Origin: Isoetes taiwanensis
Taxonomy: Eukaryota > Streptophyta > Lycopodiopsida > Isoetales > Isoetaceae
Length of the DNA stretch: 64,000 nt
NCBI GenBank assembly: GCA_021234155.1
Contig: JAJEKV010000002.1
Location: 43,823,203-43,887,202 of the forward strand
Reading direction: 5' to 3'
Shown here: one piece after another, positions 9,184 through 61,690 of the stretch
Layout of the letters: each line of letters begins with the position of its first letter
Position numbering within the stretch: position 1 is the first letter of the stretch
Translations under genes and position numbers: made by a program
Notes under the pieces: model-generated
Database searches by the model: none
What the model saw: only the letters and a program-made list of their open reading frames with translations
What the model was told of the DNA's origin: nothing

Positions 9184-9515
9184 ACACCTGTGTCACCATA
9201 ATATTTTGGAGTTCTTTGCCTTTAGTAGCAATTTTTTAGTACTCAAGTGAAGTTCGCATGTATGTAGAGAAAAAAAAAGTAGAAATAACAACATGATTCG
9301 ACTACTTTATGCTCTAACATTGCATTACAAGCTCAGAAATTTTAGAACAGTTTTAGAACTTTTTAGACTAAAAAACTAAGAAAAGTGTGTAAAATTATCC
9401 CTTATGTGTGTTACTTTAGTAGTTTTCAGTTGCCAAACCCTTTCGCGAGTAAGAAAGACCCCAAAAGATTTTACACGATATATACTTTACCTCTGGACTG
9501 CATATATATATATAC

Positions 9516-12500: not shown

Positions 12501-12785
12501 ATTGTTCTCTTAGGTTTTGAATCCTTTCAAAGCAGACCTTAATATTATAGTTATTAACCCCCGCAGAGCATATTATTTTCTTTCTATAGTTATCAGAGAG
12601 ACAAGTATAAGGGACCTATGATAAATATCAGTCTACCAAAAATAGTTAGTCATAAAGTTTCTAGAGAACCATAATGCTATAGGCATTCCCCTTGTCTACC
12701 ATCACACGAGGCCGTATAACTAGGTCTTCGAGTGCGCCTAAGGCAGCCATTTGGATATATATGTATATAGATATATATATATATA
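9516..12785 (-). repeat. 3.27-kb direct repeat, downstream copy (pseudo-LTR-like)
   Basis: Nearly identical, with scattered substitutions and short indels, to 17246-20490. Both copies start at ACAAGCCTGGGCCTGATCC and end in the same TA-rich microsatellite after GCCATTTGGATATATATG. The unit period is about 7.73 kb. This fits a head-to-tail partial tandem of a Penelope-like element, in which the repeats act as pseudo-LTRs. It is an alternative to true LTRs, since no TG..CA ends or target duplication were found. The copy includes an ORF pair at 10099-11135. Confidence 0.85.
10099..11135 (-). CDS. Repeat-encoded ORF pair: SAP-like N-terminus and Cys-rich C-terminus
   Basis: Two open segments lie in each long repeat. 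The upstream one (10716-11135, 139 codons) starts MTRTEGSGNSKPTKADIISLL. It has a helix-turn-helix-like stretch (TKADIISLLREKGIDCK) reminiscent of SAP or LEM domains. The downstream one (10099-10365) contains CMKHSEQCVACKDFW and FRCSKCFNKQ, a plausible zinc ligand set. A GT donor after LSHM (CACATG/GTAACA, near 10777) and an AG acceptor near 10350 (TTGCAG/GTAACC) would join them in frame, giving one protein of about 210 residues. Splicing is inference. The copy at 17820-18850 differs by a 6-bp deletion that keeps frame, which is mild evidence of coding constraint. Confidence 0.5.
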
Positions 12786-12851
12786 ATTGTGCCTACCTCC
12801 TGCCGGGAAGTGAGGCAAGGTCCCTATTTTTATGTATAGAGGGAGGCGGAG

Positions 12852-15371: not shown

Positions 15372-16994
15372 TCACATGTCAAATTCACGATTTGAGATGT
15401 CATATGACCTGCTGCATGAGGCGCTGGTCTTTGTAACAGAACGATCAGCAATTTCGGAATCCTCCACTTCTATGACCTCATTGTTATAGTTGATGGAAGC
15501 CTTGGAAGCCTGAGAGTAGCTTGTTTCCGGCCTAGTGTACAGCTTAGGCGGCATAATAATAGTACTGCTGGGACTGTCAGGCTCACTGAATCTTTTTCTG
15601 TTATCAACTGTAAATCCAGCATTGCTAAGATCCTGCTGCTTGCCAATAAGGAATTTGAGAGGTTTGATGGTCTTTTCAAGGATATCAGTGAGTTTTGTTG
15701 ATCCAAATTCCATGTTTAAATCAGAGTTAGGGTCCTCTGCATACATGACCACCATCCTATACATGATGTCTCTTGCTCTAATATATCCCACAAGTGCAAT
15801 AACAGCAGTTTGCATAGGCTTTGTAGATAAAAATGAACAGAATAAACCAAACCTCACAACTGTAGGCAGCGTGGGCCATGCCATATCCAGGTTGTTCATT
15901 AAGAACCAGACAGCGTGATCCAACCATATGATAGTGTCAGGACATTCCCCACTTTCTTTGGCAGTTTTACTGCAAGTGCATTTTACGAATGGGCAGAAGG
16001 ATCGCCACATCTTCTTGATGTAGAAGTCATGTCTTCTTTCATCCATCCGGGCCTGATGGCTTTTTTGCCCGATGCAGATTTTCTTACTGTTACTGCAGGT
16101 CAGTCCAAGGCACTTGGCTGGAAAAGGTAATACTACTTCCATTCTTTCGACCCTTCTGATACAGTTGTCAGAATCCTCATATGCCTCCTTGAGGTTAGTA
16201 TCATTCAGACTAGCCAGCTTTTTCCATGATTCAAAACTGATTGGTGCCAAAACTCCCAGATTCTTACTTCTCCATAGTGCTTGCTTGTACTGCTCACCAT
16301 GGGATTCAACCTCCCTTTGGGACATAATGGGGAATCTGCCACAGTTGAATAGATTCAGCATGGCAATAGGTGGTCTCTCCTCTTCCTCAGTCTGCTTGTT
16401 AGCATTTTCGTTGTTAAAACCTTCATTGCTAGCTGAAAAAGCATTTTTGTATTCATCTGGTAGCATGCTGACGCTAAAAAGGCAATTGCTGACCATGGTG
16501 TTAGGTGTCATTATGACAGGCTCAGCAGTGGTCTTTGCACGGATTCTCCTGTTATTATTAGGAGGAAAGGTAAATTTAACTCCATTAGCCCGCTCCAGGG
16601 CAGTGAGCCCTTTGACAAAGGTTTTTAGATTTGAAGCTTCCCTCTCGGTGGCCTTAAATTGTGCAAGCGGTAGCCTTGAATAACTGCTGTTAATCAGGTT
16701 TTTGCAGGCTTCAATGTCATACTCAGCCTTAGTAAACCCAGCAACAAGAGTTAGGAAATTGCTCATTCCCATGTGTATGATAGCAGAATGATCACTGTTA
16801 GGTACATTTGCCTCCATCTTGATGATATATTGGTGTAAGTCTGAGTGCAGGATACAAGATAGCACTGTTTGTACAGCATAATTTGGAGCAGGACGTCCTA
16901 GTAGGTTGTAGCCATGTGTTACAAGCTCCGGGAACCAAGTATTAGCAGCAGGAGGTCCATTCCCAGCATTCTCGTTAACTGTAGAAGTTTGCAT
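15372..16994 (-). CDS. ORF1 of the Penelope-like element, 540 aa, unknown
   Basis: Intact ORF upstream of the reverse transcriptase on the same strand. I recognise no family. It is mostly helical-looking, with a Pro/Asn-rich N-terminus. A Cys-containing region around residues 310-360 has CLGLTCSNSKKICIG and CPFVKCTCSK, which could bind zinc or nucleic acid. A Ser/Thr-rich acidic tail follows. A perfect branch sequence TACTAAC and an acceptor TTATAG/GAAGG lie 20-40 bp upstream of the ATG (exon start about 17015), so the 5' leader is probably spliced. By position it is analogous to ORF1 proteins of other retroelements. No gag zinc knuckle, protease or integrase is visible. Two long intact ORFs suggest a recently active element. 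Confidence 0.65.
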   Translation of the reverse strand: MQTSTVNENAGNGPPAANTWFPELVTHGYNLLGRPAPNYAVQTVLSCILHSDLHQYIIKMEANVPNSDHSAIIHMGMSNFLTLVAGFTKAEYDIEACKNLINSSYSRLPLAQFKATEREASNLKTFVKGLTALERANGVKFTFPPNNNRRIRAKTTAEPVIMTPNTMVSNCLFSVSMLPDEYKNAFSASNEGFNNENANKQTEEEERPPIAMLNLFNCGRFPIMSQREVESHGEQYKQALWRSKNLGVLAPISFESWKKLASLNDTNLKEAYEDSDNCIRRVERMEVVLPFPAKCLGLTCSNSKKICIGQKSHQARMDERRHDFYIKKMWRSFCPFVKCTCSKTAKESGECPDTIIWLDHAVWFLMNNLDMAWPTLPTVVRFGLFCSFLSTKPMQTAVIALVGYIRARDIMYRMVVMYAEDPNSDLNMEFGSTKLTDILEKTIKPLKFLIGKQQDLSNAGFTVDNRKRFSEPDSPSSTIIMPPKLYTRPETSYSQASKASINYNNEVIEVEDSEIADRSVTKTSASCSRSYDISNREFDM

Positions 16995-17245
16995 AGTGGA
17001 GTAAACAGCACCTTCCTATAAGATGTATGTTAGTATAACTGCAATGACCTTTACATCTTGAGAATTTTTATACATGTATCTGTGGAACTGCATAAACGCA
17101 AGCAGCCTTAATTAACAAAGTTCAACCTAAACACCCCATTCAAGCCAGAATCATGAAGTGCATGTAAGACAAAAGAATCATATGCATGGAACCACTTATA
17201 AGATCAAAACCGGTTAAACCAGTTAACTGAAGGCGCAGAATATAT

Positions 17246-20200
17246 ACAAGCCTGGGCCTGATCCAAAGACCATTACCAGACATCTGACCAAGACCAGGAT
17301 ATCCTAGTCCGGCCAGACTTATCAGTTCCATTTTTTATAGTGAGGATAACCTTATAAGGGTGCCATGCAGTCCGATTTCAACAGTCATTTAAATGAGAAC
17401 AGATATTTGAGTTGTAACACCACTAAACCTTGCCTTTTCATAAGAAATGTATCTATACATACCAAATATAGCTGTTACAATTAAATCCCATAACAAAGGC
17501 CAAGGATTTTACTAAATGAGCAGTATAAAATGTTAAAAGGATCTTAGCCAAGCAAGTTTGTTTACAGCAAGCCATACAATAGTGTTTTCAAAGACATATG
17601 TCTCCAAAGGTAAGAGACTTAAAAGCAACTCATAAAGAGCAAAAATCATATGTATTGATCAAGTACTTTTCGCAAAGATTGAAACAACTTAAAATGTTTT
17701 TCATAAATATCATCCGATTCACAAAAACTTGCTTATCAAAATCAGTAAATACCAGAAATATTATCAGGCATTAGACAGACCGAAATGCCTAGTTATGTAA
17801 TAAAACTGTAAGTTAATCTTTACTCAGCCAAAGAAGACAAAAATTCGGTCTCAATGAGTTCAGCATTTTGCTTGTTAAAGCATTTGCTGCAGCGAAAATT
17901 GGGGAAAAGATAGAACCTGAATATCTTAAAGACGACCATTTGCTCAAGAAATTTCATGTCTTTTTTAATTGCTAACACATTACTGAACCAAAAGTCTTTG
18001 CAGGCGACACACTGCTCCGAGTGCTTCATGCAGTTAATAACATGAGAGTAAGTAGATGAGATCCCGGTTACCTGCAATCCAACCATTCATATATTAGCCA
18101 AAAAGGGTAATCATGAAAGGGATTAGCAGGTAAGCAATGGAATCACATGGCATATAGCCCTTCAACTTTAAAACTTAAAAGACATTAAAACTTAGCTGTA
18201 GTAGCCACTGTATTCTGCTGTAATAACAGTACTATTTAAATCAGATGTTCCAAATCAGATCTATTAACTAATTTTAAAGCAATCATATAAACCTGGAAGT
18301 AAATAAATAGATAAGGGATAGTAAAACCTCCTGTGTGACAGCCAGCACTTAGGAATCACTGCATTTTACCTTAATGCAGTATAAACTGGATAGCATGGGT
18401 GCAAGATGCATCATATCGAATTTATTCAACCTAAACCTAAGCAATCATTCCTGTTTTTGTATTACCCTCCCGATTTTTTACTTGATCTTTTGTTACCATG
18501 TGAGAAAGCATCAGAATAATCAAATGGACCTGATTTAGTGGTACGCAATCATCCTCCAGAAGTTCGTCCTCAGCAGCAGCCAGGTTAATGCTGCTCCCAA
18601 CATTTGGATTTGCAGGCAGATTGCTTTTTCCAGCGATTACTAAACGGCATGCTTCAATACTTGAACCAGGGCGTTTCCCCAACACTGGCTTCTTGATAAA
18701 ATTGAGGTTAATACCAGCATGCCTAGCCATATCCTCCAGAACAGATTTCTTGATGGCCACTCCATCATTCTTACAGTCAATCCCCTTTAACAAACGGATG
18801 ATATCAGCTTTAGTGGGCTTAGAATTGCCTGATCCCTCAGTTCTTGTCATTGCAGCAAGGTGAAGGAGATAGCGGAATGATCTTCTCCCTTTAGTATTTC
18901 GTAATGCAGGGGTTTCCTTTAATTCTTTATTACCTTACTCATATGACGGTTTGATGATAAATAAAGAGGATCTAAGACTTAGGTTATGCTCGGGTACATC
19001 ATTAAATGCCAGCGGCAGCATATTTTCATGGCTGAGTAATGCATATCCACCAAGTATACCAAGATTCAGAAGTTACCGTGAGACGAATCCAAATCTGCTT
19101 TATCAGAGTAGAGCCAGCAGTCGTACCTTATATGCAGCCTACCGTGAACCCTATGAAACCAAAACCCTTCATGTTTTGTCCCATCACCCATCCAAATCGC
19201 CATATTCGGCATAAACTTATGCGTGTTCAAGAGGCCAGCAAGATCTTCTTTGCAATAAGTTAAAGTGGAAAAAGCTTGACTCCCAAATCGTCTAAGTAAT
19301 ATTCCGTTTAAACATGCCATGATGATAAGCTATCGTGTAAAGCTTGTCTTTGGAATGAAGTCTCACCAAACCTTGGCGCCATTCTTCCTTTTACGCCATT
19401 CAAACCCTAATGTAGACTTACCCAAACCATCCGTTCACTAGGAGTACCACCGCCACTAGATACACTAATACCCTTATGCATTATACTTTAATTTCCAATA
19501 AATACATCCGGTGTGTTTTAACCAACTTATTTAGATTTACCCCAAAGGTTAGCTCTGATCATTATATTCCCATTTTTGTTCGATTATAGAGAGTATTCCC
19601 AGTCAGGATGTACCCTAAATAGGAAATTAACAGTGAGAAATCTTACCAATCCTAGGTGTAAGTTCATCGTAAAACACCTTATTCCAATAAATAGGGAATT
19701 TACACATAGTTCCATATTTGCCACTAAGGCTCTAAAGCTGACTTGGGTTTGTCTTGCTTAAAATATCCTGGTCCCATTCACGAATTGCTTATAAAAGCCA
19801 AATATCCAGTAATATCGTATGTCATATGCGTTAAAAAATTGTCTAGCAGAACTAGCACAAGAGTCCTAGTGTCATAAACATATGGTGTATCCCATAATAA
19901 AGAGGTCAAATCATATCTAGAGCTCCATAATTGTTGAGATGTTCTTTATGACAATAATCACACCGGGCCATAAGATTAGGTCACAGATTGTGCCAAAGGC
20001 ATCAGTATGGCTGATCATACTATGCGCCCAGAGCAGCAATTTAAAGGTTAGAATAGTGAATTACAACAGTATGAGTATACTGCCCTAAGCCAACAGTTCA
20101 AAAGTTTATAGAAAATCAGTTTACTAGAGATGTTCCATTAGACCTTGTGCAGATCCTAGCCATAGCAAAATGTAGCCAATTAGCCCCTTCCACATAGGGG

Positions 20201-20490
20201 TAAATCATTGTTCTCTTAGGTTTTGAATCCTTTCAAAACAGACCTTAATATTATAGTTATTAACCCCCGCAGAGCATATTATTTTCTTTCTATAGTTATC
20301 AGAGAGACAAGTATAAGGGACCTATGATAAATATCAGTCTACCAAAAATAGTTAGTCATAAAGTTTCTAGAGAACCATAATGCTATAGGCATTCCCCTTG
20401 TCTACCATCACACGAGGCCGTATAACTAGGTCTTCAAGTGCGCCTAAGGCAGCCATTTGGATATATATGTATATAGATATATATATATAT
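17246..20490 (-). repeat. 3.25-kb direct repeat, upstream copy (pseudo-LTR-like)
   Basis: Near-identical partner of 9516-12785, located 5' of ORF1 in the element's reading direction. It would contain the promoter. Differences include a lost 13-bp stretch near 18905 and small indels around 19290-19400. It abuts the palindrome array at its outer side. Confidence 0.85.
17820..18850 (-). CDS. Second copy of the SAP-like/Cys-rich ORF pair
   Basis: Open segments 18437-18850 (137 codons) and 17820-18086 (88 codons) correspond to 10716-11135 and 10099-10365. Differences are few: a 6-bp in-frame deletion turns LLREKGID into LLKGID, and there are a few substitutions. The same splice signals that could join the two segments are present. 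Because it lies upstream of ORF1 within the transcription direction, it could be the first ORF of the element's message. Confidence 0.5.
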
Positions 20491-20515
20491 AAACGTTTTA
20501 TATATATATGCAATT

Positions 20516-47480: not shown

Positions 47481-48000
47481 GGGTAAGGCCATTTTCCACG
47501 TGCCTTTATCCTATTGAGCAACCGCCACACGGCATTACCTTATTGGAGCCACGTGGCATAACATGTGAACCCTAACCTATAAAGGCCTAAACCCTAACCC
47601 TAGGCCTCTTTTCTGGCTCCAATAGCCTGGGAACCTTCTTCGCGCTCGAAACTCCATTTCGAGAACCGTTTGCTGTGGCATAGCCTAGCACAGCAACCCC
47701 CGGAGCGTGTGCGCGTCAGTAGGAGTGAGAGCTACTTCAACGACCTTGAAGACCATGGAGACGCCAAAAGCAGGAGGGGGTTCCTTAGGAGCAGGTATTT
47801 GGGTTAGAGTTCTTTGTAGATCATCTGGAAGTTAAGACTCTAGATGAGTTAGCATTTCGTGTCTCTAGTAAAGCCTTCTTAGAACCCTCAGTCTAGATCT
47901 TGAACCCTAATCAATGAACCCTAACTGTAAGTTAGATGTGTATGATTAGGTTTAGATGTTATTCTCATTATTATCATGTATGTGGATATGTGATGTTGGT
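47480..48000 (+). mobile_element. Probable 5' part of an older, diverged LTR (target of the nested element)
   Basis: Contains a TATA box (CTATAAAGG, about 47578) beside telo-box-like repeats (CTAAACCCTAACCCTAGG) and an ATG leader. It ends exactly at the TTGGT duplication of the chromovirus. The flank on the other side (61188-61690) resembles the middle of the chromovirus LTR, so both flanks together could be one interrupted relative. The upstream border at 47480 is a guess. Confidence 0.4.
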
Positions 48001-49683
48001 TGTGACGTTCCAAGTATTTATACGGTATACGTATAAATATATTAACACGTCACCCAGTATAGATACGCCACCATGGGGTATGGTAACCTAGGGGGTTGAC
48101 CTAAAAGGGATTAAATTAGCTATGCTAATTTAATTATTAAGGATAATAACCTATAATTAAGGAATTAATATTTAAGAAGGATAATTAAGCTAATTATGGT
48201 TTGGGAAGGCGCCACCTGGCCAAACCCAATTGGCCAGCATGGTGAATACTAATTGGAACCATCAAGGTGGATCACCACCCCCATATCAACCATAATCGAC
48301 CAAGAGAAGCTGAGCGCCTACCTTTGCCAAGCTGAGCGCCACCTTTGCCAAGCACTTATACTTGTGTAACCAGGGCTGAGCACCAAGTCCCAGGAAGATG
48401 GAAGCACCAAATGACAACGGATCCAGTAGGAACTCAGGTGGGTGGTTAGTATAGCTTGAGAATTCTAGGGTAGCGCCCCTGTTGGGCACTTGTTGTGTTG
48501 TTCTGTCTGTTCTCTCTGTGCTTTACTTGTAGGAACTAACCCTTGATTGTCAAGGTAAGTTCTCTTTATATTCTGATTCTGGTTCTGCTCTTAAAGGATG
48601 GATTGATAATTCTTTGCATAGTATTACTCTGGAAATGGGGGAATTAAGGGGGGTAGAGACCTCTGAGCCATGATAGTAGGATGCTCCTAGGTTGATCCCT
48701 GTATTTCCCAGTAGATTGCGGCCTGTGTACAAGAGACCACCGAGTCGTGGATGCTATGGAGTGACTTAGCACCAAACAAGGGACACAGTGGTGAAGTGGG
48801 GGTGGGGTCTTGCACGAACATAAAAGGCTCCTGAGACTCCTACAGTGGGCTAGGCCTGATAGCCGGTCACGTAGAGGGCCGGGTATGGGTCTGACACTCT
48901 CTGGGTGTAGATAGCCGGTCACGTAGAGGGCCGGGTATGGGTCTGACACTCCCTGGGTGTAGAGGTGTGATCCGTATGGAGCATCTTGCACTTTGAGTAG
49001 ATTTAGGGTGAGTAAGTCGGGTACGGATGCGGGGGTCGCTGATGCGGCACGTATTCTCTAGCTCACCCATGAAACCACTGTGATCCTGGAAGGGGACGCT
49101 TCCCCGACCTGCCTCATCGGACGGGGCTTCATGAACCCTGTAGTAGGCTCGAAGGGTGATACCTTGAGTCTGTGTGTCCGGAAGGCTATAGTGACGCCAT
49201 AGCATGATTGGACTCATCTGCAAAGTGTGCACAGGAGGGGCGGATGGAGTGGACAACCCTAGCCAATGTTCTATGCCAGCCAACGCCATGCCAAGATTCG
49301 GTCTGCTGAGCTCTTGAGACCTAGCCGTCAGTCGATCCTCACTGGAGTCTGAGCCGGGGTAGAACCATGGGTTTGGGTGTTTTCCTTAGTATTAAATGCA
49401 TATTCGTTGTTGTTGTCACTTGGATGGATGTGCCACCCCTCGTGGTGGTAAATTATGATATGATTATGTTGTGTGCTGACCTTGTATTCACGCTTCCGCG
49501 ACGTAGGAGCCCCATTGAAGGCGTGGGCCGAATGACCCCTCTGTGTCCTTCACTTGAGCATCTTTTTTTATAGATGCCCCGAGTTAGACGAAGGGCCCTG
49601 CTCATGGTGGGTTGGTCACCATGGGAGGGGAAAGTCCCAGTATGTATACGTCCGAGTGTCGTATATGTTCAGGGAGCGTCACA
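48001..49683 (+). repeat. Left LTR of the chromovirus
   Basis: 1683 bp, TG..CA ends. It has two copies of a ~53-bp block (ATAGCCGGTCACGTAGAGGG...) at 48855-48963, where the right LTR has one. It has two AAGCTGAGCGCC-type units, where the right LTR has three. Confidence 0.92.
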
Positions 49684-49684
49684 G

Positions 49685-49697
49685 TGGTATCAGAGCC
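49685..49697 (+). promoter_or_regulatory. Primer-binding site, initiator-Met tRNA type
   Basis: TGGTATCAGAGCC begins one base after the left LTR. It matches the usual plant LTR-retrotransposon PBS complementary to tRNA-iMet. Confidence 0.92.
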
Positions 49698-50390: not shown

Positions 50391-51211
50391 ATGCCGCGTT
50401 TTAAACTTACCGTGGACCTCAAGAAGATGAACGTATTTCAGCTGTTTAGCGTGCTAGTAGATCATCTTTCGGATGATAGCCCCACCATTGATACGGTTTT
50501 AGACCTTTTTGTGAAGCACTTCATTGAGGGCCGCAGAATCCCCTACCCCAAATGAGCGCTTCCTTATGAAACTAAACGCTGCAGATCAGCCTTACACTCT
50601 TGTAGAGCAGCCGGACCACGCTTGGGCCGTAGTTAGGTTCTATCCCTCAGCCAGGACCAGATGAGGACCCCGTGAGAGCTTATCGAAATGAGGCCCAAAG
50701 GAACATGCACCTTGCTAGGGTAGAAGACCTTGACAAATAGCTAGTGCCCCACCGGGCCATGCAGGCTAACGCTTTTTTACTACCTTGGTAAGGGCCGTGT
50801 ACTTATGTATCAAGACTATTATAATCTTCCTACCTTCTTTTGGAATGAAGACCTTAATAGCTTCATTTTTGAAAATGTTCCACCTAATTTTGACCAAGCC
50901 CGCATGGACCTCGTGCAAAGTGACATCCGGAAGCCTTCGGATAGGTACCATCTGAGGAGATTGCCAGTTAATATAAATGCGCTTTGGACAAAGAGGCCGG
51001 GATGCGAAGAGAGAGAGCCCAGAAGGAAGAGGAGGATGCCCAAAATCAGCAGAGCGGGAACCAACAGGTGGATCAGCAAGACGACCAGCAGGTTGATCAG
51101 CAGCAGGAACAAGATGTTGATCAGCAGCAGAATTCAGATGTTGATCAGCAGTAGGATCAAGGTGTTGGTCAGAATGTTGACCATCAGGGAGACCAGAATA
51201 CGGGTCAAAAT
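50391..51211 (+). pseudogene. N-terminal part of the element's H3 fusion protein, unknown domain and Gln-rich linker
   Basis: Starts MPRFKLTVDLKKMNVFQLFS and continues through two frame changes (near 50550 and 50650-50800) into NERFLMKLNAADQPYTLVEQ, DEDPVRAYRNEAQRNMH and DYYNLPTFFWNEDLNSFIFE. I recognise no family. From about 51010 the frame CEERAQKEEEDAQNQQ leads into a VDQQ-repeat, Gln/Asp-rich linker (51060-51240) with a TAG at about 51152. This linker reads directly into the H3-fold ORF. The frames are open long enough that the interruptions look like later damage to a single coding region of about 450 codons. It sits where chromoviruses normally have only a leader. Confidence 0.5.
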
Positions 51212-51760
51212 GTGAACCAACCGGTAGATCAGAGCGGGCCCCAGAATAGGAAGCATACGGAGTGGGGTAACAGGAAGTTGAAGAGAAAGAACACCAAACC
51301 CGTTAAGGGAGGTGTGGATTACAAGACCCGATTACAAAAGAATGCCGCCATTGCCAAGAAGACATCAGCTCAGAGGCGGGAGCAAATCGTGCAGCGGGTC
51401 AAGCATCCAACTACCGGTGGGAAATCCCTCCCATCGCTAAAAGCGACCCTCAAGCCGCGAAAGCCCCATAGATACCGACCGGGCACGGTAGCACTTCGGG
51501 AGATACGTAAGTATCAGAAGTCTACTGAGCCAATGATTCGTCGGCTTCCTTTCCAGCGGCTTGTACGGGAAATTGCCCAGGAGTTTAAAACTGATCTGAG
51601 GTTCCAAGCCTTTGCAATCCTCGCACTCCAGGAGGCTGCTGAGGCTTACCTCATAGAGATTTTGAGTGACGCCAACCTCTGCGCGATACATGCGAAGAGG
51701 GTTACCATCATGCCCAAGGACCTCCAGCTAGCTCGAAGGATCCGAGGGGAGTTTCGGTGA
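51212..51760 (+). CDS. Histone H3-fold protein carried by the retrotransposon
   Basis: Open frame of 182 codons; the true start is probably further upstream. Residues 1-64 are basic. From residue 67 the sequence is histone H3: TTGGK corresponds to the H3 tail around Lys14. It is followed by a tail about ten residues shorter than canonical H3. [20 protein letters not shown] (84-103) is the alpha-N region. [20 protein letters not shown] (111-130) is helix 1 and loop 1, and LQEAAEAY (139-146) belongs to helix 2. [16 protein letters not shown] (155-170) and LARRIRGE close the fold. Loop 1 is not lengthened, so it derives from ordinary H3 rather than centromeric CENH3. The fold has no stop or frameshift, while flanking pol is broken. 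Known function: H3 forms nucleosomes with H4. Whether this product enters chromatin is unknown. Confidence 0.92.
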
Positions 51761-52059
51761 CTAGGCGACTCTCTTTCTTCTATTGTAAAAATTTTTGTGG
51801 ACTTAATTATGTGAAATATTCCCAATTTTCGGGTTGTGAATATAAAAAAATGTTTTTTTTCGCCACTTGGTGTGAATTTAAAAATAAATTATTAATTAAA
51901 TAATAATTTCTAATAATAATTTCGGGAAACGTGCTGAAAAGTATAAAGCCCCTTTTTGGCCATTAGGGTTTCATTTTCCCTTCTTGCTTTTCGCGTTTTC
52001 CTTCTCCTCTCTTGCGCCTTCAACCTTATGGATCGCCCAACCTTATAGCAGTGGTATCT

Positions 52060-53028
52060 AGATGGAGAGCATTGGGACCCCGCGGTCCCCTTTGACCTTC
52101 TTCACCCTTATCTCCTCCAGCAGGTAGACCTCGTCTCCAACATGCGGCACCCGGACTATCTTTGCCTTCCTTCCGGTTTTCCATGAGGAGATTGTACGCC
52201 TTGCGTCTTCAATGAAGACGACACACAACTCTATCTCGACTTCCACACTTTGCTCGAGATGCTAGGAGATGATGAGCACGCCCGGAATGTCATCAAGGGC
52301 ATAAGGAGGCGGGGGACTGACCTCCCTATTGTTACAATAGATCGGGAAACTTGTTTTGAGGCCCGATTTGCATTGGCCATCATCATGGACCAGTATATTG
52401 AGGACGAGGAGATAGGCTGGCGAGCATTCCTCTACGCTGTACCTCGACCCGGGAGGAAGGCGAAGTCGTCGTCGGCGAAAGCGAGATTTTGTAAGGTGGA
52501 GGGAACTTGCCACTGAAGCCCCTGCAAGTCGAGAGAAAGCCCTCAAGCTCGAAGGGCTAAACCTTCTCCCTACAGTACTCTTGAATAACCAAGAGTACCT
52601 AATTCTTGAGGACATTATGTGGGCCTACCGCGTCATTGCTGGGATGCGGGGCCGCAAAAAGATAGAGGTCCTCTATGATCTTGCTGAGTATTGCCAGGAC
52701 GACTTCCTCGACTTTACCACACCGGTTGTGCATCCCTCACCAGTTGAGAACTTGTTGGCATACCGGCCAGAAGAACTAGAGCCCGTTGAGACCCTTTTGT
52801 CACTTCGGTCGTTCTTGTTGACTGGCACACCCCAGCCTCCGGAGGAGCACTTTGCAGCTCAGATGCGCCCCCCACTCGCAGATCCGCCTTTGCAAATCAC
52901 CATGGGAGAGCTGGATCAGGAAGAGGAAGACCTTTGGGACACCAAGGTCAGCCTTAGAGATGACAAGGAAGAAGTAGAGGAGGAGAAGCTCCCCGTGAAC
53001 TTGGAAAAGGGATCCTCAGATTAGGGCA
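52060..53028 (+). pseudogene. Accessory reading frames after the H3 domain (acidic, unknown)
   Basis: Segments in three frames form one plausible ~320-codon coding region: WYLDGEHWDPAVPFDLLHPY near 52060, then CVFNEDDTQLYLDFHTLLEM (about 52200) running into 52250-52516. ELATEAPASREKALKLEGLN (about 52505) continues into 52581-53024, which ends with an acidic tail (EEDLWDTKVSLRDDKEEVEE). No family recognised. Frameshifts near 52180 and 52480 separate the pieces. Confidence 0.4.
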
Positions 53029-54266
53029 ATGGGTAACCATGTGCCCCGATTCTTTCTTTCAGCTTTCCGGCAAGGAGAGGTACTGTTCTTCTCCAAGAAC
53101 TTGGGGCCTTCTTCTGAAGCTTCTTGGTGGGCGCTCCGAGCCATATCCACTTCAGCGGGCCATAAGAAGATTGACTATCACGCCACTACCATTACCTTGG
53201 TCCGTAGGGATTTGGCTATAGCAGCATTGGGGGACGTGGCAGGCTGCGCTAATATGCGGCTCCTTGTGGCGGCACCTTTGGCCACTTGCTTACCACCAGA
53301 GGCAGCAGCTCGAGCCGCCCTCTCTGCTAGCCCCAGTGCTACCTTGATGTGCTACCGTCCACCTCGTCAGCCTATGGACGAAGAGGAGGGACCTAGTTCT
53401 TAGAGATTTGTGTTACGCATTTTGTACTGCATATAGTTGTAAATTTTGGTTTGGCATGAATACAATTAAATTGTTCTCTTCCATGATACGTCCTTGTAAC
53501 TGTAAGAGCTTAGAATATAAGGAAATTGTGCAATGTTCTATATTCATTCCTACCGTCTTGCAGACGAGGGACTCGAAGAATATGAAGAAAGAATTACCAA
53601 CCAGATACGAAGGGGTGATCCAGGACCACCTGACCAGGATTATGGCCAGCGGAATGGGGAGGTAGGCTACGAGGTAGGGGAACCCGCACAGCCAGGAGAG
53701 CCCTATGATCCAGCCAAGGGGATGGAGGTAGTTAACATTCTCAGGGAACGGGCCTTTGACGACCTGAAGCAGACTCTTCGTCGCACATGGGACTATTGGG
53801 ACATGTCAAGGCACGAAGCTTTTGAGGATGCCAACGATCACCTGTGGCAGATTTTCTATGCATTAAGGAGGCTCTTCAATCTCCTTATCATTAGCCCAAC
53901 ACTGGATTATCAACCTGTTATCGTCCAGGCTTGGGCTCGCTACAAGTTTAATAGTGAGAGCTGTACGCGAGAGCGTTCGCTACTCTATCTTGTACCCTTT
54001 CGCGAACCCCTAGGCCTGGTTCACTCAGTTTTGTTTTTTTTCTATGTTATGTGTGAGTTAGAGAAATGTCCAATGTATAATACTTGTCTTTGTATTGTAT
54101 CTCTTTAAGTTTTGTCACTACCAGTGTACTAAACTCTGATGTAACACTATTCCCACCTGTAATAAAGATCTTTGCTTATACTCTTTTATGTATTTTCTCT
54201 CAATACTATCCGAAATGATATTCTTCATGAGACTTCATATCACTAAAATTCTGCTTATATCTTTTC
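53029..54266 (+). pseudogene. Further accessory ORF upstream of gag, unknown
   Basis: 53533-54108 contains DEGLEEYEERITNQIRRGDP, a Gly/Pro-rich stretch, then NILRERAFDDLKQTLRRTWD and a hydrophobic helix (FYALRRLFNLLIISPTL). Similarity seems to end near 53960. 53029-53403 is an alternative open frame of low conviction. I do not recognise either. Confidence 0.35.
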
Positions 54267-55640
54267 ATGCTCGATAAAGACGGTGCACGTAACGTCGTCT
54301 GGCAGCCGCCCTCAAATGCCAGTAGACTAACACCTGAGCAAGAACTAATGTTGATGAAGCGACAATTAGTTGAGCTGCAAACCTATGTCTTGAATGCCAA
54401 CCCACCGCAGCAGGTACAGGAGGATGGACCGGAGTTACCTCCGTTGCCGCCAAGTCCACTACCCCAATAGCCACTTGCACCTGAACCAAGCCCTGTACCC
54501 GCACAAAGGAAGCACCGTTCCAAACGCCATCGAAGTTCCTCTGGGGATAGTGCCACACCCTCACAATCAGCCACTTCTGAGTCCTCTGAGTCATCCGTAT
54601 CCTCGCGTGATCACCCAAAGCGCCGGGACAAGGAATACCGTAAGACGGTTGATACGGCCATAACCAGTATATGGAAAAACAGGAAATTAGCCCAGTTCGA
54701 TGGGAAATCTAGAGGCGGGCTGAATGCAGAGTCCTGGTTGGACGAGATGAAGGAGTTTGGGAAATCCTATGGCATGACAGAAAAGGATACAGGAAAGGTT
54801 GCCACCACAAACCTTACAGAAGCTGCTCGTATTTGGTGGAAGGGCTATGCCAGAGCCAAGCATCTGGACAGAAGCAGATGCAAATTCAGGAAGTTTGCCA
54901 AAGCTTTTAAGTCGCATTATGTGCCTCGTGCGCACAAATGTCAGCAGATTCAAACTTTCTACCGGTTAGAGCAGAAGGGTATGTCAGTTCAGGCCTACAC
55001 TGATGAATTCATGCGCTTGAGGCTGTATGTGCCAGGAATGAATGAAAAAAGGGCGGTGGAGGGCTACATTGAAGGGTTGGCCCCATCAATTAAACGAATG
55101 GTTAAGGCCATAGACCAGAAATCAGTTGCAGAGGCTGAGGCTAAGGCATTGAGCCTCGAGGAGGACATGCCAAGAAACCAGTACCCGCATCCTGCTCCTT
55201 ACTCGCAACCACGCCCGTCTACACCTTATAAACCCCGCTCACCGAGTCCGGGGCCCTCTCAGCAGAACTCCAACGGCCGCCCGGAAAAGAAAGTCACCTT
55301 CAACATGCCCGACAAACCGAACAACGTTGGTAAGGAAGTTCGGAATCTCTTACAGTCTATTTCCAAAGAGGCTCGAGAATAGCTCCGCCGAGATAAGGCA
55401 TGTTATAGGTGTATGCGGCCCGGGCACTTCATGCAGAATTGTCCCTATGTCACGCAGACTGCCCAGCTGGCCATGGCTGACCTCGATTGGGATGACCTCG
55501 AGTCCACTCTACCTGTCGAGGAGGAGCCTCCCGAGTACATTCAGGGTGAGTCCCATATCCTTGCAGCCATTGAAACTGGCAATGCTGAAAGTCAGCCTGC
55601 CGTTATTTCCACCATAGGTCAAGTAGACAGCAAACCTTTT
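54267..55640 (+). pseudogene. gag (capsid and zinc knuckle)
   Basis: Starts MLDKDGARNVVWQPPSNASR. A frame change at about 54460 leads to RDKEYRKTVDTAITSIWKN, then the capsid core with AARIWWKGYARAKHL and QTFYRLEQKGMSVQAYTDEF, typical of the plant Ty3/gypsy retrotransposon gag. CYRCMRPGHFMQNC is a CCHC knuckle near 55405-55450. An in-frame TAG at 55380-55382 precedes it; a C-to-T change of CAG is the simplest cause. Gag forms the virus-like particle and packages the RNA. Confidence 0.88.
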
Positions 55641-58600
55641 ATAATACTGATGGATACGAGTAGTACACATAATTTTGCTTCTCCTAGAATGGCCCAGGTA
55701 TTGCGACTTGAAACTTTGAGATCCCGACCGAAGCCTGTCACTTTAGCCAGTGGTAAGATCAGACACACTCATGGCCGTCGCATTAACCTTAAGATGCAGT
55801 TGCCAGGTGCACCAGTTGCCTTGGGTGCCGAGATAATGGATATTGGCAAATATGATCTTATTGTTGGATGGAATTCTTGGCATCTGCAAAAGCCAATATA
55901 GACTGCGAGAAATGGGAACTTACCTTCAACGCCGCTAACGGAGCCCGCGTGACTATAAAAGGTGACTCCTTAAATTCCATTATGCAGTCTATCACCATCG
56001 GGCAGTTAGATAAGGCTATACGTAAAGACAAGTTGCTTTGCATTATTAGACTTGCCTCCATTGAATCAGATGCCAAGCAGAAGCAAGTAGTTGACACCTT
56101 GCCAGAAGGGATTGCCAATATTCTTCGAGAATTCACCGATCTTTTTCCAGAGGAGATCCAGAAGCTTCCTTCTTTTAGAGGGGTAGAATGTGAGATAGCT
56201 TTGGAACCAGGTACCAAGCCTACCAGTAAGGCCCCGTACCGTATGAGTCCCCCTGAGTTGGCAGAGCTTAAGAAGCAGCTTCAGGAGTTACTAAACCTAG
56301 GGTTCATCCAGCCTAGCGTTTCGCCCTTTGGCGCTCCTATCTTTTTTGTTAAGAAGAAGGATGGCTCTTTAAGGATGTGTATTGATTATCGGCAACTCAA
56401 TAAGCATACCATCAAGAATCGCTATGCTTTGCCTAGGGCAGATGATCTAATGGACCAGTTGCAAGGGGCCAAGTATTTCTCAAAGATTGATTTACGCTCC
56501 GGATATCATCAAATAAGGATTAAGGAGGAGGACATCCATAAATCTGCTTTTCGCACTAGATATGGGCATTATGAGTTTACCGTTATGCCTTTTGGATTAA
56601 CTAATGCCCCCCGCAACATTTATGCGGTTAATGAATGATGTCTTCCGACAATACTTGGATGATTTTGTTGTTATTTTCTTTGACGACATTCTCATCTATA
56701 GTAAGACCCTGGAGGAGCATGAGAAACATCTTCGGTTGGCCCTAGAGAAGCTAAGACGCCATCAGCTCTTTGCCAAGTTCTCTAAATGCAAGTTTGCCAC
56801 TCCCAAGGTGGATTATTTGGGACATATCATTTCAGCAGAGGGCATTGCTACAGATCCAGCAAAGATAGAGGCAGTAAGAGACTGGCCTATTCCGGGTAAT
56901 GTTTCAGAAGTCCGGAGTTTCTTAGGACTAGCAGGATATTATCGGAAATTTGTTAAGGATTTTGCAAAGATTGCCGCACCTCTTACTGATCTCACAAAGC
57001 ACGAGAAGGTGAAGGATTGGATTGAACACTGGAAAGCAAAAGTCCAGGTAGGTTTTCAGCAGCTTAAGGATGCTTTAACGTCAGCACCAGTCCTCACATT
57101 GCCCGATCCTGAGAAGGATAAATTAGTAGCAACGGATGCCAGTAAAATTGCTACCGGTGGAGTCCTAATGCAGGAAGGAAGGGTTATTGCCCATGATTCA
57201 AAGAAAATGAGCGAGACGGAGCAGCGATACCCTACCCATGATCAGGAATTGTTAGCCGTTGTCCGTGCTCTACGGATATGGAGACACTACCTTCTTGGTA
57301 GAAGATTCTAGCTGGATACGGATCATCAGAGTCTCCGTTACTTATCCACCCAGCCAAATCTCAATCTCCGTCAGAGAAGATGGATGGAATTTCTGGAGGA
57401 ATATGACTTCGAGATTATGTATAAGCCTGGGAAACACAATGTGGTTGCGGATGCCTTGTCACGTCATCCCTTGGTAACCCGAACCCATTGTAATGCAATT
57501 TCTACACTCACCAGTGAGTTTGGGAAACAGATAGAACAGACCTTGGCCACGGATCCCGGGTTCCGTGATGTGTGGGATAGTTTGACTAAGGAAGCTCGCA
57601 CAGATAAAGATCATGAAGCTGTCCGTTCGTATAAGAAAGAAGGCAACTTGTTATATTACAAGGATAAGTTGTGTGTACCTGAGACTTCAGGAGTACGTAA
57701 ACTCATTCTCCATGACACGCACAACAGCCCTATAGCTGGACATGCCGGTTTTATGAAGACCTACTTTAAGATCTGCTCCAGTTATTTCTTGGCCTTCGAT
57801 GAAGAAGGACATCGCCAGGTATATTAAACAATGTCAAATCTGTCAACAGACCAAGGCTGAGCAACTAAGGATTCCAGGAGAGTTGCAACCGTTGGATGTG
57901 CCCAATGCTAAGTGGGAGGTGATAACCATGGCTTTCATTGTGGGCCTTCCACGTACTCTCCGTGGATACGATGCATTGATTTTGCAAAGGAGATCTTCAG
58001 ACTGCACGGAATGCCACAAGTTATTGTGTCCGACAGGACCCCAAATTCGTAAGTGCCTTCTGGAAAGATTTCTTTGCTACCATCCAGACCAAGCTTGCTA
58101 TGAGTACGGCATATCATCCCCAAACGGATGGTCAGACTGAGCGTACCAATCGTATTATAGAAGATATGCTACGGAGTTATGTGTGGAGTAAGCAATCCCA
58201 ATGGGCTGACTATATTTATCTGGTCGAATTTGCCTATAACAGTATGAAACAGGAATCTTCCAGAATGTCTCCCTTCATGATAAATTATGGTTATCAATGC
58301 CTTACTCCAGACACATGGCATAACCCCGTTTCTAAAGTGGAGGTTTCTCAACAACTCCTCCTGGAAATGCAAGCTTTGGTTGAAGAAGTACGTGGGTACT
58401 TATTAGCGGCACGCAGTCGTCAGAAGAGTGTAGCCGATAAGCACAGAACCCCACGCGTCTTCCAGGTGGGCGAATCAATTTGGCTTAAGATTAAAGTAAA
58501 ACAAGCCAAGCTTAAAATTGGTAACTGCAAGAAGTTGGCACCCAGATGGGCTGGGCCGTTCAAAATCACTGAACGTGTTGGGGAACAGGCATATCGCCTG

Positions 58601-58976
58601 GAATTGCCACCCCACTTGAAGATCCACACGGTCTTCCATGTGAGTCTTCTAAAGCAAAGACACCCCCGGATCGGAGGAGATCTTGGATACACCCACCCTA
58701 CTTGAGATGACAGAAGAGCAATTAGATATAGTGCCTGAAGCTCTTCTTGATCGAGTATATAAGCAGACCAGGAGGACCCAACTGCTACAATACTTGGTCA
58801 AGTGGAAACACTTGCCAGTTGAGGATGCTACGTGGGTAATGGAAACAGATCTTGAGAAGCACTATCCGGACTTCATGCGCGAATCTCAAGGCCGCACCAT
58901 CAACGATGCTATCAACCCCGCACCCGGCGGTAAGCGTGGAAGCTTGATTGCCGACAATAGCGCTGTAGAGGGGTAG
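55600..58976 (+). pseudogene. pol: protease, reverse transcriptase, RNase H, integrase, chromodomain
   Basis: Protease: ILMDTSSTHNF, where the usual active site DTG reads [38 protein letters not shown] and [10 protein letters not shown] (about 56370-56710). RNase [18 protein letters not shown], then TDHQSLRYL. Integrase: HNSPIAGHAGF with CQICQQTK (zinc part). The first catalytic block reads MAFIVGLP in place of the usual MDFIVGLP, so the first Asp is lost. About 60 codons after it are deleted near 57980. VSDRTPNF and STAYHPQTDGQTER follow. The chromodomain YLVKWKHLPVEDATW lies near 58790-58835. Frames change near 55885, 56610, 57800, 58000 and 58690. An in-frame TAG sits at 57309-57311. Non-functional for autonomous movement. 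Confidence 0.92.
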
Positions 58977-59570
58977 ATGCATCTTAAATAAAAAGGGTAC
59001 CGATGATGAGATCACCTTTGTCTTCTCTAGGACGTGGTGTACTGTCGATGTTGACATGACCACGAATTGCTTGGAGCATATAGTTGATAGGCCGCGTTCA
59101 TCTCGGCTACAATGGGAACTTCACCATTCCCTACGCTGCAATGAATTGCAAACCATATACATGATAGGTTTTCCCGTAGCTAGATTTTCTTTTATTTCTT
59201 ATAGGGGGTGGTCCCTTCAACCACAACTTAATCATCTTATATATATTATATATACTGATGTGCTCACATGTGCAGGCCAGTGAGCAGTACGTGACCTGCC
59301 CATGTATAGAGAGTTGCTGATGGCTCGACTTTTCCAGTTTTCATTGTGTCTACATGTGTTTCCTTCTTGTTACTCTGATATTTGATATTGGACTTCGGTC
59401 CTTGAACTTCTTGCTTATGATAATCATGTGAAATGCACCTCGGTGCTTAAACTGTTTTAAACTTTAAAGTTTTAATATATTACCTTCGGAAATAAGGAAT
59501 TACCTTCCTTCATAATGTCATTTCCTATATTTATACCTAGCCCCAATGCTGGGGACAGCATTAATTCTAA
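58977..59570. other. 3' untranslated part of the chromovirus
   Basis: No coding sequence recognised between the chromodomain stop and the polypurine tract. A short TA-rich stretch lies near 59235-59255. Confidence 0.6.
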
Positions 59571-59581
59571 GGAGGGGAGAA
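59569..59581 (+). promoter_or_regulatory. Polypurine tract
   Basis: AAGGAGGGGAGAA directly precedes the right LTR. It is the plus-strand priming site of LTR retrotransposons. Confidence 0.9.
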
Positions 59582-61187
59582 TGTGACGTTCCAAGTATTT
59601 ATACGGTATACGTATAAATATATTGACACGTCACCCAGTATAGATACGCCACCATGGGGTATGGTAACCTAGGGGGTTGACCTAAAAGGGATTAAATTAG
59701 CTATGCTAATTTAATTATTAAGGATAATAACCTATAATTAAGGAATTAATATTTAAGAAGGATAATTAAGCTAATTATGGTTTGGGAAGGCGCCACCTGG
59801 CCAAACCCGATTGGCCAGCATGGTGAATACTAATTGGAACCATCAAGGTGGATCACCACCCCCATATCAACCATAATCGACCACGAGAAGCTGAGCGCCT
59901 ACCTTTGCCAAGCTGAGCGCCTACCTTTGCCAAGCTGAGCGCCACCTTTGCCAAGCACTTATACCTGTGTAACCAGAGCTGAGCACCAAGTCCCAGGAAG
60001 ATGGAAGCACCAAATGACAACGGATCCAGCAGGAACTCAGGTGGGTGGTTAGTATAGCTTGAGAATTCTAGGGTAGCGCCCCTGTTGGGCACTTGTTGTG
60101 TTGTTCTCTCTGTTCTCTCTGTGCTTTACTTGTAGGAACTAACCCTTGATTGTCAAGGTAAGTTCTCTTTATATTCTGATTCTGGTTCTGCTCTTAAAGG
60201 ATGGATTGATAATTCTTTGCATAGTATTACTCTGGAAATGGGGGATTAAGGGGGTAGAGACCTCTGAGCCATGATAGTAGGATGCTCCTAGGTTGATCCC
60301 TGTAGCCTGTGTACAAGAGACACCGAGTCGTGGATGCTATGGAGTGACTTAGCACCAAACAAGGGACACAGTGGTGAAGTGGGGGTGGGGTCTTGCACGA
60401 ACATAAAAGGCTCTGAGACTCCTACAGGTGGGCTAGGCGATGGCAGGTCCGCGTGAGGGCGGGTATGGGTCCGACACTCCCTGGGTGTAGAGTTGTGATC
60501 CGGTATGGAGCATCTTGCACTTTGAGTAGATTTAGGGTGAGTAAGTCTGCACGGATGCGGGGGGTCGCTGATGCGCACGTATTCTCTAGCTCACCTATGG
60601 AACCTTTGTGATCTGGAAGGGGCGCTTCCCAGGCCTGCCTCATCGGACGGGGCTTCATGAACCCTGTAGTAGGCTCGAAGGGTGATACCTTAGTGCGTGT
60701 GGGAAGGCTATAGTGACGCCATAGCATGATTGGACTCATCTGCAAAGTGTGCACAGGAGGGGCGGATGGAGTGGACAACCCTAGCCAATGTTCTATGCCA
60801 GCCAACGCCATGCCAAGATTCGCTCTCCTGAGCTCTTGAGACCTAGCCGTCAGTCGATCCTCACTGGAGTCTGAGCCGGGGTAGAACCATGGGTTTGGGT
60901 GTTTTCCTTAGTATTAAATGCATATTCGTTGTTGTTGTCACTTGGATGGATGTGCCACCCCTCGTGGTGGTAAATTATGATATGATTATGTTGTGTGCTG
61001 GCCTTGTATTCACGCTTCCGCGACGTAGGAGCCCCATTGAAGGCGTGGGCCGAATGACCCCTCTGTGTCCTTCACTTGAGCATCTTTTTTTATAGATGCC
61101 CCGAGTTAGACGGAGGGCCCTGCCATGGGAGGGGAGAGTCCCAGTATGTATACGTCCGAGTGTCGTATATGTTCAGGGAGCGTCACA
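59582..61187 (+). repeat. Right LTR of the chromovirus
   Basis: 1606 bp. Matches the left LTR throughout with scattered small deletions (for example around 60300, 60430-60480 and 61125). TTGGT follows at 61188-61192. Confidence 0.92.
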
Positions 61188-61690
61188 TTGGTTGATCATG
61201 CCTTGCTCCTCTTGTATTGGGAAGGGGGGTAGAGACCTAGTAGCCATTACTTAGTGATGCTCCTAGTTTAGACCCTTTAGTTCCTATTATTATGCGGCCT
61301 GTGCATAGGAACCCACCGGGCTATGGGGGCTATGATATAACTCAGCACTACATAACGGGGCTAGAAGCGAGACGGAGGAAGGGTCCCTACTGAGAGCGGC
61401 TACTGGGGACCCATAGCGGGCTAGGTTTATGGCCGGACACTTCAAGTTGGCCGGGCATGGGTCCAACACGTCCTGGGGCAATGGTGTTGCCCTGCCTCTC
61501 AAGAGTTGCAGGTGACGTCTGGCTCTTGTTTTGGGGGGTTAAGTCGGGGAAGAATCGTGTGTCACCATGATTCTCTAGCCGCCCGTGGAACCTCTAGACC
61601 CCGGGAAGGGGAGATGGAACCCTTCCTGCCTCGACGGACCGGGGAAATGCAACCCGGTAACGACCCAAGCATGAAACCTCGAAAATTGGA
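61188..61690 (+). mobile_element. Diverged LTR fragment related to the chromovirus LTR
   Basis: GGGGGGTAGAGACCTAGTAG, ATGCTCCTAG, GCGGCCTGTGCATAGGAACC, then GGGCTAGGTTTATGGCCGG and GGGCATGGGTCCAACACG follow the same order as 48645-48960 of the left LTR, with clear divergence. This is best read as the remaining half of an older related LTR that the chromovirus split. Confidence 0.6.

What the first reader, a model, noticed from the sequence alone, without database searches (positions are those of the whole stretch)
50391..51760. Ty3/gypsy chromovirus carrying a histone H3-fold protein between PBS and gag
The H3 fold at 51404-51757 is nearly canonical (alpha-N, helices 1-3, [12 protein letters not shown]) and intact. 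It lies inside a retrotransposon with PBS, polypurine tract, LTRs and TTGGT duplication all visible. It is fused to an unknown N-terminal region through a VDQQ-repeat linker. Survival of the H3 frame while pol is broken hints at constraint or recent capture. A retroelement bringing its own H3, together with its integrase chromodomain, could influence chromatin at its target or in the particle. I know of no described plant LTR element of this kind.
Basis: partly seen in the sequence, partly recalled or inferred. Interest (0 to 1): 0.95.

Follow-up and report, generated by a model that had tools for sequence, protein, structure and literature searches.

The report
Jumping gene carrying its own histone
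A large, old family of plant retrotransposons carries its own copy of histone H3, joined to an unknown protein and stripped of the tail that cells use to write silencing marks, and evolution has kept that histone intact.

Summary
The window holds a Ty3/gypsy chromovirus (LTRs, TSD, PBS, PPT, gag-pol, chromodomain) with an H3-fold ORF between PBS and gag. In this copy ORF1's N-terminal half and pol are broken; the H3 part is open. The host is almost certainly the lycophyte Isoetes taiwanensis (matching assembly size). The genome holds 1,030 exact hits to an H3 motif, 15 host H3 loci found, and 1,398 of this family's LTR-PBS junctions. Many copies have one open ORF1 of 418-459 aa: N-domain, acidic linker, basic tail, H3 fold. 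A second lineage (pol about 45% identical) has the same plan, yet the H3 folds are 81-86% identical. The fold is under purifying selection (pN/pS 0.08, like RT; 7 synonymous and 0 nonsynonymous changes in one lineage-B pair). Synonymous sites are saturated against host H3, so the capture is old. The canonical tail (K4, K9, K27) is gone; residues recalled as DNA and H3-H3' contacts remain. Most likely it forms nucleosomes or tetrasomes that cannot carry tail marks, shielding or targeting the element: inferred, not shown. My searches found no retrotransposon-encoded histone; the nearest precedent is a fungal hAT transposon with an H3-like gene.

The parts
47996..48000 (.). target-site duplication TTGGT (left copy)
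48001..49683 (+). 5' LTR, TGTGACG...CGTCACA
49685..49697 (+). primer binding site TGGTATCAGAGCC (initiator-Met type, name recalled)
   Evidence: sequence; 1,398 such LTR-PBS junctions genome-wide with at most one mismatch
50391..51760 (+). ORF1: N-domain + acidic VDQQ linker + basic tail + H3 fold; in this copy the frame is broken in the N-domain and by a stop at 51152-51154 in the linker; 51155-51757 is open
   Evidence: open frames of 440-485 aa in other copies
51092..51172 (+). 24-base tandem repeat encoding the VDQQ linker
51461..51757 (+). H3 histone fold (99 codons, alpha-N to C-terminus)
52028..53400 (+). ORF2 remnant (unknown protein, 463 aa in L017), frame broken here
   Evidence: alignment of five copies; no Pfam hit, no PDB match
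53524..54009 (+). ORF3 (unknown, about 167 aa)
   Evidence: no Pfam hit
54348..55412 (+). gag region (Retrotrans_gag)
55563..56912 (+). protease and reverse transcriptase, frames broken
56916..58666 (+). RNase H and integrase, frames broken, part of the integrase core missing
58683..58976 (+). ORF with the chromodomain at the integrase C-terminus
   Evidence: (Chromo E 1.8e-10)
59569..59581 (+). polypurine tract AAGGAGGGGAGAA
59582..61187 (+). 3' LTR
61188..61192 (.). target-site duplication TTGGT (right copy)

Best explanation
SHOWN: a high-copy Ty3/gypsy chromovirus family encodes, as the first long ORF after the PBS, a protein of about 450 aa: a unique N-domain, an acidic Q-rich linker, a strongly basic segment and a histone H3 fold. 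The fold evolves under purifying selection as strong as that on RT, and its synonymous sites are saturated against host H3. That it was caught once, from a host-type H3, before lineages A and B split is inferred from shared layout and shared odd residues. INFERRED: the protein pairs with host H4, forms H3-H4 tetramers and enters nucleosomes or sub-nucleosomes on the element's own DNA or on host chromatin. Its canonical tail is replaced, so such nucleosomes cannot carry K4, K9 or K27 marks. They display the N-domain instead and resist the silencing that normally acts on such elements, and/or mark chromatin for the integrase. The changed positions 86, 87 and 89 at the start of helix 2 suggest a changed deposition route.
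For: Copy number and linkage to the element. ORF1 N-domain and H3 in all 20 lineage-A copies read; ORF2 in 17 of these 20 and in the window copy; the other 3 (L011, L012, L014) lack ORF2 and ORF3 but keep ORF1-H3 next to gag-pol. Purifying selection: H3 fold pN/pS 0.079 over 190 pairs of 20 copies, median dN/dS 0.050; RT 0.080 in the 6 copies with open PR-RT, H3 0.073 in the same 6; wrong-frame control 2.4 and 5.4. Lineage B: 7 synonymous and 0 nonsynonymous changes between L044 and L061, and 32.5/6.5 and 29.5/6.5 for the other two pairs. The H3-blind copy L069 against L045, L044, L061: 23/1, 28/4, 26/4 synonymous/nonsynonymous. Between lineages the H3 fold is 81-86% identical, while ORF1 N-domain is about 35%, gag 32-47%, PR-RT 43-46%, RH-IN 48% (gag-pol from one B copy with broken frames). 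Per-position table: positions 110, 111, 113, 116, 123, 126, 129, 130 and 42, 49, 53, 56, 63, 69, 72, 83-85, 115, 117, 118, 120, 122 keep the host residue in the majority of both lineages; their roles in H3-H3' and DNA contact are recalled. Tail lost. The segment between linker and fold has net charge +18 in L009.
Against: No expression, binding or localisation data. The N-domain has no credible Pfam or PDB relative. A basic tail could also serve nucleic-acid packing. 8 of the 12 junctions fetched among the 28 without the exact motif had neither H3 fold nor tail at the expected place, so many copies are decayed or rearranged, as expected for any element. The exact PBS 12-mer was found upstream of ORF1 in 14 of 20 copies only. 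The AF2 model without an alignment was poor (pLDDT 50). Copies for dN/dS were chosen for open frames (A) or similarity to host H3 (L044, L045, L061), which lowers pN somewhat.
Confidence: 0.45

Rival explanations
1. Particle or cDNA packaging and nuclear import: ORF1 with host H4 coats element nucleic acid in the particle or pre-integration complex, and the basic H3-like part gives nuclear entry through the H3-H4 import route.
For: ORF1 lies before gag, with a +18 basic segment and a conserved DNA-contacting fold. ORF1 is retained when ORF2 and ORF3 are lost.
Against: Gag with a weakly matching zinc knuckle already exists (L011). H3-H3' interface residues are kept, which packing alone need not require (roles recalled).
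Confidence: 0.25
2. Integration targeting: the H3 variant is laid down at particular chromatin and its N-domain (or the chromodomain) draws the integrase there.
For: The same element carries a chromodomain integrase. Position 87 is F in all 20 A and 3 B copies, and 86 and 89 are changed in most.
Against: No insertion-site analysis was made; the I. taiwanensis paper reports an even distribution of repeats (passages).
Confidence: 0.17
3. Chaperone or H4 decoy: free ORF1 soaks up H4 or H3 chaperones and so weakens host chromatin assembly on new copies.
For: The fold as a whole is conserved, 60 of 99 positions identical in host and all 23 copies compared.
Against: Positions recalled as DNA contacts are conserved too, which a soluble decoy would not need.
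Confidence: 0.09
4. Passive passenger: a host H3 pseudogene caught once and copied along without function.
For: Many copies are broken, including ORF1 of the window copy; by my count 39 of the 150 scored rows show a stop inside.
Against: pN/pS 0.08 across deep divergence, saturated synonymous sites, retention when ORF2 and ORF3 are lost.
Confidence: 0.03
5. Assembly chimera.
For: None found.
Against: The same arrangement at many loci on many contigs and in a diverged second lineage.
Confidence: 0.01

Closest known systems
hAT DNA transposon with H3-like gene (H3L) in the fungus Pyrenophora tritici-repentis (PMC3538342; passages read)
   Same: A mobile element carries an H3-like gene in many copies, beside an ORF of unknown function.
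   Different: DNA transposon with TIRs and hAT transposase, 26 very similar and recently expanded copies in a fungus; the authors leave selection as an open question. Here an LTR retrotransposon in a lycophyte, of the order of a thousand copies, two old lineages, purifying selection, fused N-domain, tail replaced.
Orchid (Phalaenopsis) Gypsy elements with an AlkB RNA demethylase ORF (PMC9289625; passages and section 12 read)
   Same: A plant Ty3/gypsy element has fixed a captured host domain that may counter host control.
   Different: Enzyme acting on RNA, not a chromatin structural protein. That screen of 121 angiosperm genomes reports 15 extra domains; none of the nine named in the text of section 12 is a histone; its figures and supplement were not seen.
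Bracovirus histone H4 (CpBV-H4; PMC5423620, abstract and outline read; review PMC9145170, passages)
   Same: A mobile or viral genome encodes a core histone whose N-terminal tail matters; the viral one joins host nucleosomes.
   Different: H4 in a polydnavirus of wasps; no retroelement.
Plant chromoviruses, including those of Selaginella (PMC3350952; passages read)
   Same: Gypsy LTR elements whose integrase bears a chromodomain.
   Different: No histone ORF is mentioned in the passages seen.

Membership tests
Ty3/gypsy LTR retrotransposon, chromovirus | LTRs with TG...CA ends, target-site duplication, PBS, PPT | tested here: met
   (window copy)
Ty3/gypsy LTR retrotransposon, chromovirus | gag, PR, RT, RH, IN order with RT before IN | tested here: met
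Ty3/gypsy LTR retrotransposon, chromovirus | chromodomain at the integrase C-terminus | tested here: met
   (Chromo E 1.8e-10 in the window, 6.3e-8 in L011)
Ty3/gypsy LTR retrotransposon, chromovirus | assignment to a named clade (Tekay, CRM, Galadriel, Reina, Tcn1) | not tested
   no reference RT set at hand
Histone H3 | H3-type histone fold with alpha-N helix | tested here: met
Histone H3 | canonical N-terminal tail [10 protein letters not shown]...KAARKSAP | tested here: not met
   only a PTTGG-like remnant in lineage A, an insertion before KPHR; K4, K9 and K27 contexts absent
Centromeric H3 (CENH3) | longer loop 1 and strongly diverged fold (feature recalled) | tested here: not met
   loop 1 has the length of host H3; fold 83-86% identical to two host H3 proteins
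Histone H3 as a nucleosome component | binds H4 and DNA in nucleosomes | not testable with these tools
   only residue conservation
hAT-H3L transduplication element | hAT transposase and terminal inverted repeats | tested here: not met
   element has LTRs and pol

The most novel reading that the evidence does not exclude
A retrotransposon-encoded H3 variant is deposited into plant nucleosomes, replacing the modifiable H3 tail by a 220-aa element-specific domain, so that the element builds chromatin on which host silencing marks cannot be written: a selfish counterpart of a histone variant, kept for as long as the A and B lineages have been apart.
Probability: 0.35. Interest if true: 0.97.

Novelty: new variant of a known kind. 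Interest (0 to 1): 0.92.

Why it matters
Transposons are silenced through marks on the H3 tail. An element that has kept its own tail-less H3 under strong selection suggests that the histone itself is a weapon or tool in the conflict between plants and retrotransposons. It makes testable whether mobile elements build their own chromatin, how a large N-terminal fusion is tolerated in a nucleosome, and what the changed helix-2 positions do to H3 chaperone choice. It also warns that H3 gene counts in such genomes can be swamped by element copies.

Tried and rejected
Rejected: single-copy pseudogene, assembly chimera, recent capture (saturated dS), CENH3, homology of ORF1 N-domain with ORF2 (hhalign probability 0.1). 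Led nowhere: N-domain profile against Pfam and PDB (best PDB E 0.022, a GNAT acetyltransferase, not believed); ORF2 profile against PDB (nothing); AF2 of the window H3 ORF without alignment (helices in the order expected of alpha-N, alpha-1, alpha-2, alpha-3 but pLDDT 50; not used in a fold search). I thought L073 might be an H3-less sister family; with L075 it proved to be a copy that keeps the ORF1 N-domain and has lost what lies between it and the RT, H3 included. Presence in other Isoetes or lycophytes could not be tested: the genome search says that G000 has no relatives here.

Full report
What is in the window. The 5' LTR is 48001-49683 and the 3' LTR 59582-61187, both beginning TGTGACG and ending CGTCACA, with TTGGT on either side; a TGGTATCAGAGCC primer binding site follows the 5' LTR and a polypurine run precedes the 3' LTR. 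Between them lie, in order, the H3 ORF region, two ORFs of unknown function, gag, protease, reverse transcriptase, RNase H, integrase and a chromodomain. The LTRs differ by 25 transitions and 21 transversions in 1,582 aligned sites (K2P 0.030); at a generic plant rate of 1e-8 per site and year (recalled, not measured for this host) that is about 1.5 million years. ORF1, ORF2 and pol of this copy are broken by frameshifts or stops, and part of the integrase core is missing; the H3 part is open.

The H3 fold. Residues 84-182 of the 182-aa ORF (51461-51757) match H3 without a gap from alpha-N to the C-terminus (Pfam E 8.1e-43; PDB H3.3 E 1.6e-51). The GTG-started 182-aa ORF is only the end of a larger protein. 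In the 20 other copies chosen for it the frame is open for 442-485 aa, and in 17 of the 20 it has an ATG equivalent to 50391, from which it runs 418-459 aa; in L012, L021 and L028 that ATG was not found. In L009 (452 aa) the protein is an N-domain of 219 aa (net charge -8), a Q-rich acidic linker (-10), a basic segment of 64 aa (+18) and the H3 fold (+9).

The host. The window's genome has 1,658,258,908 bases in 1,110 contigs. The Isoetes taiwanensis paper gives 1658.30 Mb in 204 scaffolds and 909 contigs, 1,113 in all (PMC8566536, passages). I take the host to be I. taiwanensis; this is an inference from size, in keeping with host H3 genes that differ from angiosperm H3.1 (angiosperm residues recalled). 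The word 'histone' does not occur in the main texts of that paper or of the I. sinensis genome paper.

Copy number. A protein search gave 8,992 first-look candidates, of which the 150 best were scored; all 150 matched, at 79-99% identity, and by my count by eye 111 of the 150 rows show no stop inside and 39 do. A query with canonical H3 gave 9,030 candidates, 150 scored: 15 host H3 loci at 96-99% and then 135 element-type rows at 82-88%. Because only the best are scored, I counted in another way. The degenerate pattern for [11 protein letters not shown] occurs 1,030 times exactly, 0 times reversed; this includes host genes and short remnants (L049, L054 and L055 hold little more than the end of the fold). 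The family's LTR end plus PBS, with at most one mismatch, occurs 1,398 times, 0 times reversed.

An H3-blind test of linkage. The 41 exact LTR-PBS junctions listed on contigs C1 to C852 were compared with the motif list, which is complete to C852: 13 of 41 have the exact motif on the same strand 1.4-2.6 kb downstream; about 0.0004 per junction is expected by chance. Of the remaining 28, I fetched 700 bases for 12, all on the plus strand and not drawn at random: 3 carry an H3 fold (L069, L070, L072; the last two damaged), 1 the tail only (L074), 8 neither. So the H3 belongs to the element; many copies are decayed or rearranged.

Lineage A. Twenty copies chosen for long open ORF1 among the 150 scored (L009-L028) were read 10 kb each. 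ORF1 N-domain and H3 were found in 20 of 20, the exact PBS 12-mer upstream in 14 of 20, ORF2 in 17, at least part of ORF3 in 13, gag in 14, and gag or pol in 16; none of gag or pol in L009, L016, L020 and L022 within the 10 kb read. L011, L012 and L014 lack ORF2 and ORF3 yet keep ORF1 with H3 next to gag-pol, L011 and L012 with the same junction and L014 with a slightly different one.

Lineage B. A second, far diverged lineage (L044, L045, L061 which is also L046, and L062) has PBS, ORF1-H3 and ORF2 in L061, and ORF1-H3, ORF2, ORF3, gag and pol in that order in L062; in L061 no ORF3, gag or pol was found within the 10 kb, and in L062 no exact PBS. Identity to lineage A: ORF1 N-domain 34-35%, ORF2 35-52%, ORF3 37%, gag 32-47%, PR-RT 43-46% (and a 22-residue piece at 77%), RH-IN 48%; gag-pol figures rest on one B copy with broken frames, which depresses them. 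The H3 folds of A and B are nonetheless 81-86% identical. Shared peculiarities (F at 87 and A at 107 in all 23 copies, L at 124 in 20 of 23; a KTS..RR tail motif in most) speak for one capture before the split. Degenerate copies such as L047, L051 and L058 hint at further lineages.

Selection. In 190 pairs of the 20 A copies, pN/pS is 0.079 in the H3 fold, 0.225 in the N-domain, 0.457 in the linker and 0.217 in the basic tail. In the 6 copies whose PR-RT is open, RT has 0.080 and the H3 fold 0.073. Reading the H3 fold in the wrong frames gives 2.4 and 5.4. In lineage B the L044-L061 pair has 7 synonymous and no nonsynonymous difference over 99 codons, the other two pairs 32.5/6.5 and 29.5/6.5. 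The H3-blind copy L069 differs from L045, L044 and L061 by 23/1, 28/4 and 26/4 synonymous/nonsynonymous changes over 86 codons. Against two host H3 genes, synonymous sites are saturated (pS 0.75-0.89). A tree of 24 distinct H3 folds puts host, A and B each on one side of a branch, with support 99/94, 98/95 and 93/84; B has two distinct rows and the root is arbitrary. Limits: A copies were chosen for open frames and similarity to the window, B copies for similarity to host H3; both choices lower pN somewhat, which is why L069 matters.

What was kept and what was lost. The canonical tail [30 protein letters not shown] is absent; lineage A keeps a PTTGG-like stretch, followed by an insertion before KPHR. 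The PTTGG weakly favours an H3.3-like source, since the host's L029 has SAPTTGG and the other host genes SAPATGG. In the fold, 60 of 99 positions are identical in the host H3 row used and in every one of 20 A and 3 B copies, single-copy decay included. The fixed or common changes are at 41, 54, 57, 59, 60, 64, 77, 86, 87, 89, 101-105, 107, 124, 125, 134 and 135. Residues that I recall as H3-H3' or DNA contacts keep the host letter in most copies of both lineages, apart from the changes at 41, 64 and 86. Positions 86-90 are recalled as chaperone-discriminating.

Mechanism. The anatomy and the selection fit a protein that still does what H3 does, pairing with H4 and holding DNA, but presents another domain instead of the tail. 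The reading I commit to is element-coded nucleosomes or tetrasomes that cannot take K4, K9 or K27 marks, giving resistance to silencing and/or a handle for integration. Nothing here shows expression, complex formation or chromatin location. Packaging or import, targeting and decoy remain open rivals, with the confidences given. The window chromodomain aligns best to a CHD1 chromodomain; compared with HP1 from memory it seems to lack two of three cage aromatics.

What is in print. Of ten searches of the held open library, eight asked for retroelement-borne histones and two for the host genome and for viral histones. No paper in the rows listed, or in the passages I read, describes a retrotransposon that encodes a histone; some searches had more hits than rows shown, and subscription papers and preprints are not held. 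The nearest precedent is a hAT DNA transposon of the fungus Pyrenophora tritici-repentis that carries an H3-like gene in 26 very similar copies (PMC3538342, passages). A screen of 121 angiosperm genomes reports 15 extra domains; the nine named in its section 12 include no histone, and its figures and supplement were not seen (PMC9289625). In a review of viral histones the word retrotransposon does not occur (PMC9145170).

Verdict. Real, old, constrained, and new for retroelements as far as I could search; the mechanism is inferred. Because the base is a known kind (chromovirus with a captured ORF) and a DNA transposon with H3 is known, I file it as a new variant of a known kind, with high interest.

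Noticed in passing
window 9510-12786 and 17240-20492, with ORFs 12914-15034 (-) and 15372-16994 (-): 3.28-kb direct repeats (97.5% identical) flank a 706-aa ORF with a weak RVT_1 hit below the Pfam cut-off (E 1.3e-5) and a YMDD-like motif, plus a 540-aa ORF without Pfam hit; looks like an unusual retroelement with long terminal direct repeats.
   Followed up: no
L011, L012, L014 (lineage A copies): Derivatives that lost ORF2 and ORF3 but keep ORF1-H3 next to gag-pol; L011 and L012 share the junction, so that form has probably multiplied itself.
   Followed up: partly
window 52028-54009; L017 4192-5580: ORF2 (463 aa in L017) and ORF3 (about 167 aa) between H3 and gag are recognisable in lineage B too (35-52% and 37%). 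No Pfam hit for either, no PDB match for ORF2; ORF3 was not compared with PDB.
   Followed up: partly
L047, L051, L058: Degenerate H3 copies that differ from both A and B, possibly further lineages of the same element group.
   Followed up: no
L030-L043: The host's A31-type H3 genes have Y41 and L90, unlike angiosperm H3.1 (angiosperm residues recalled); four of them lie on C1025 within 0.3 Mb and two on C445.
   Followed up: no
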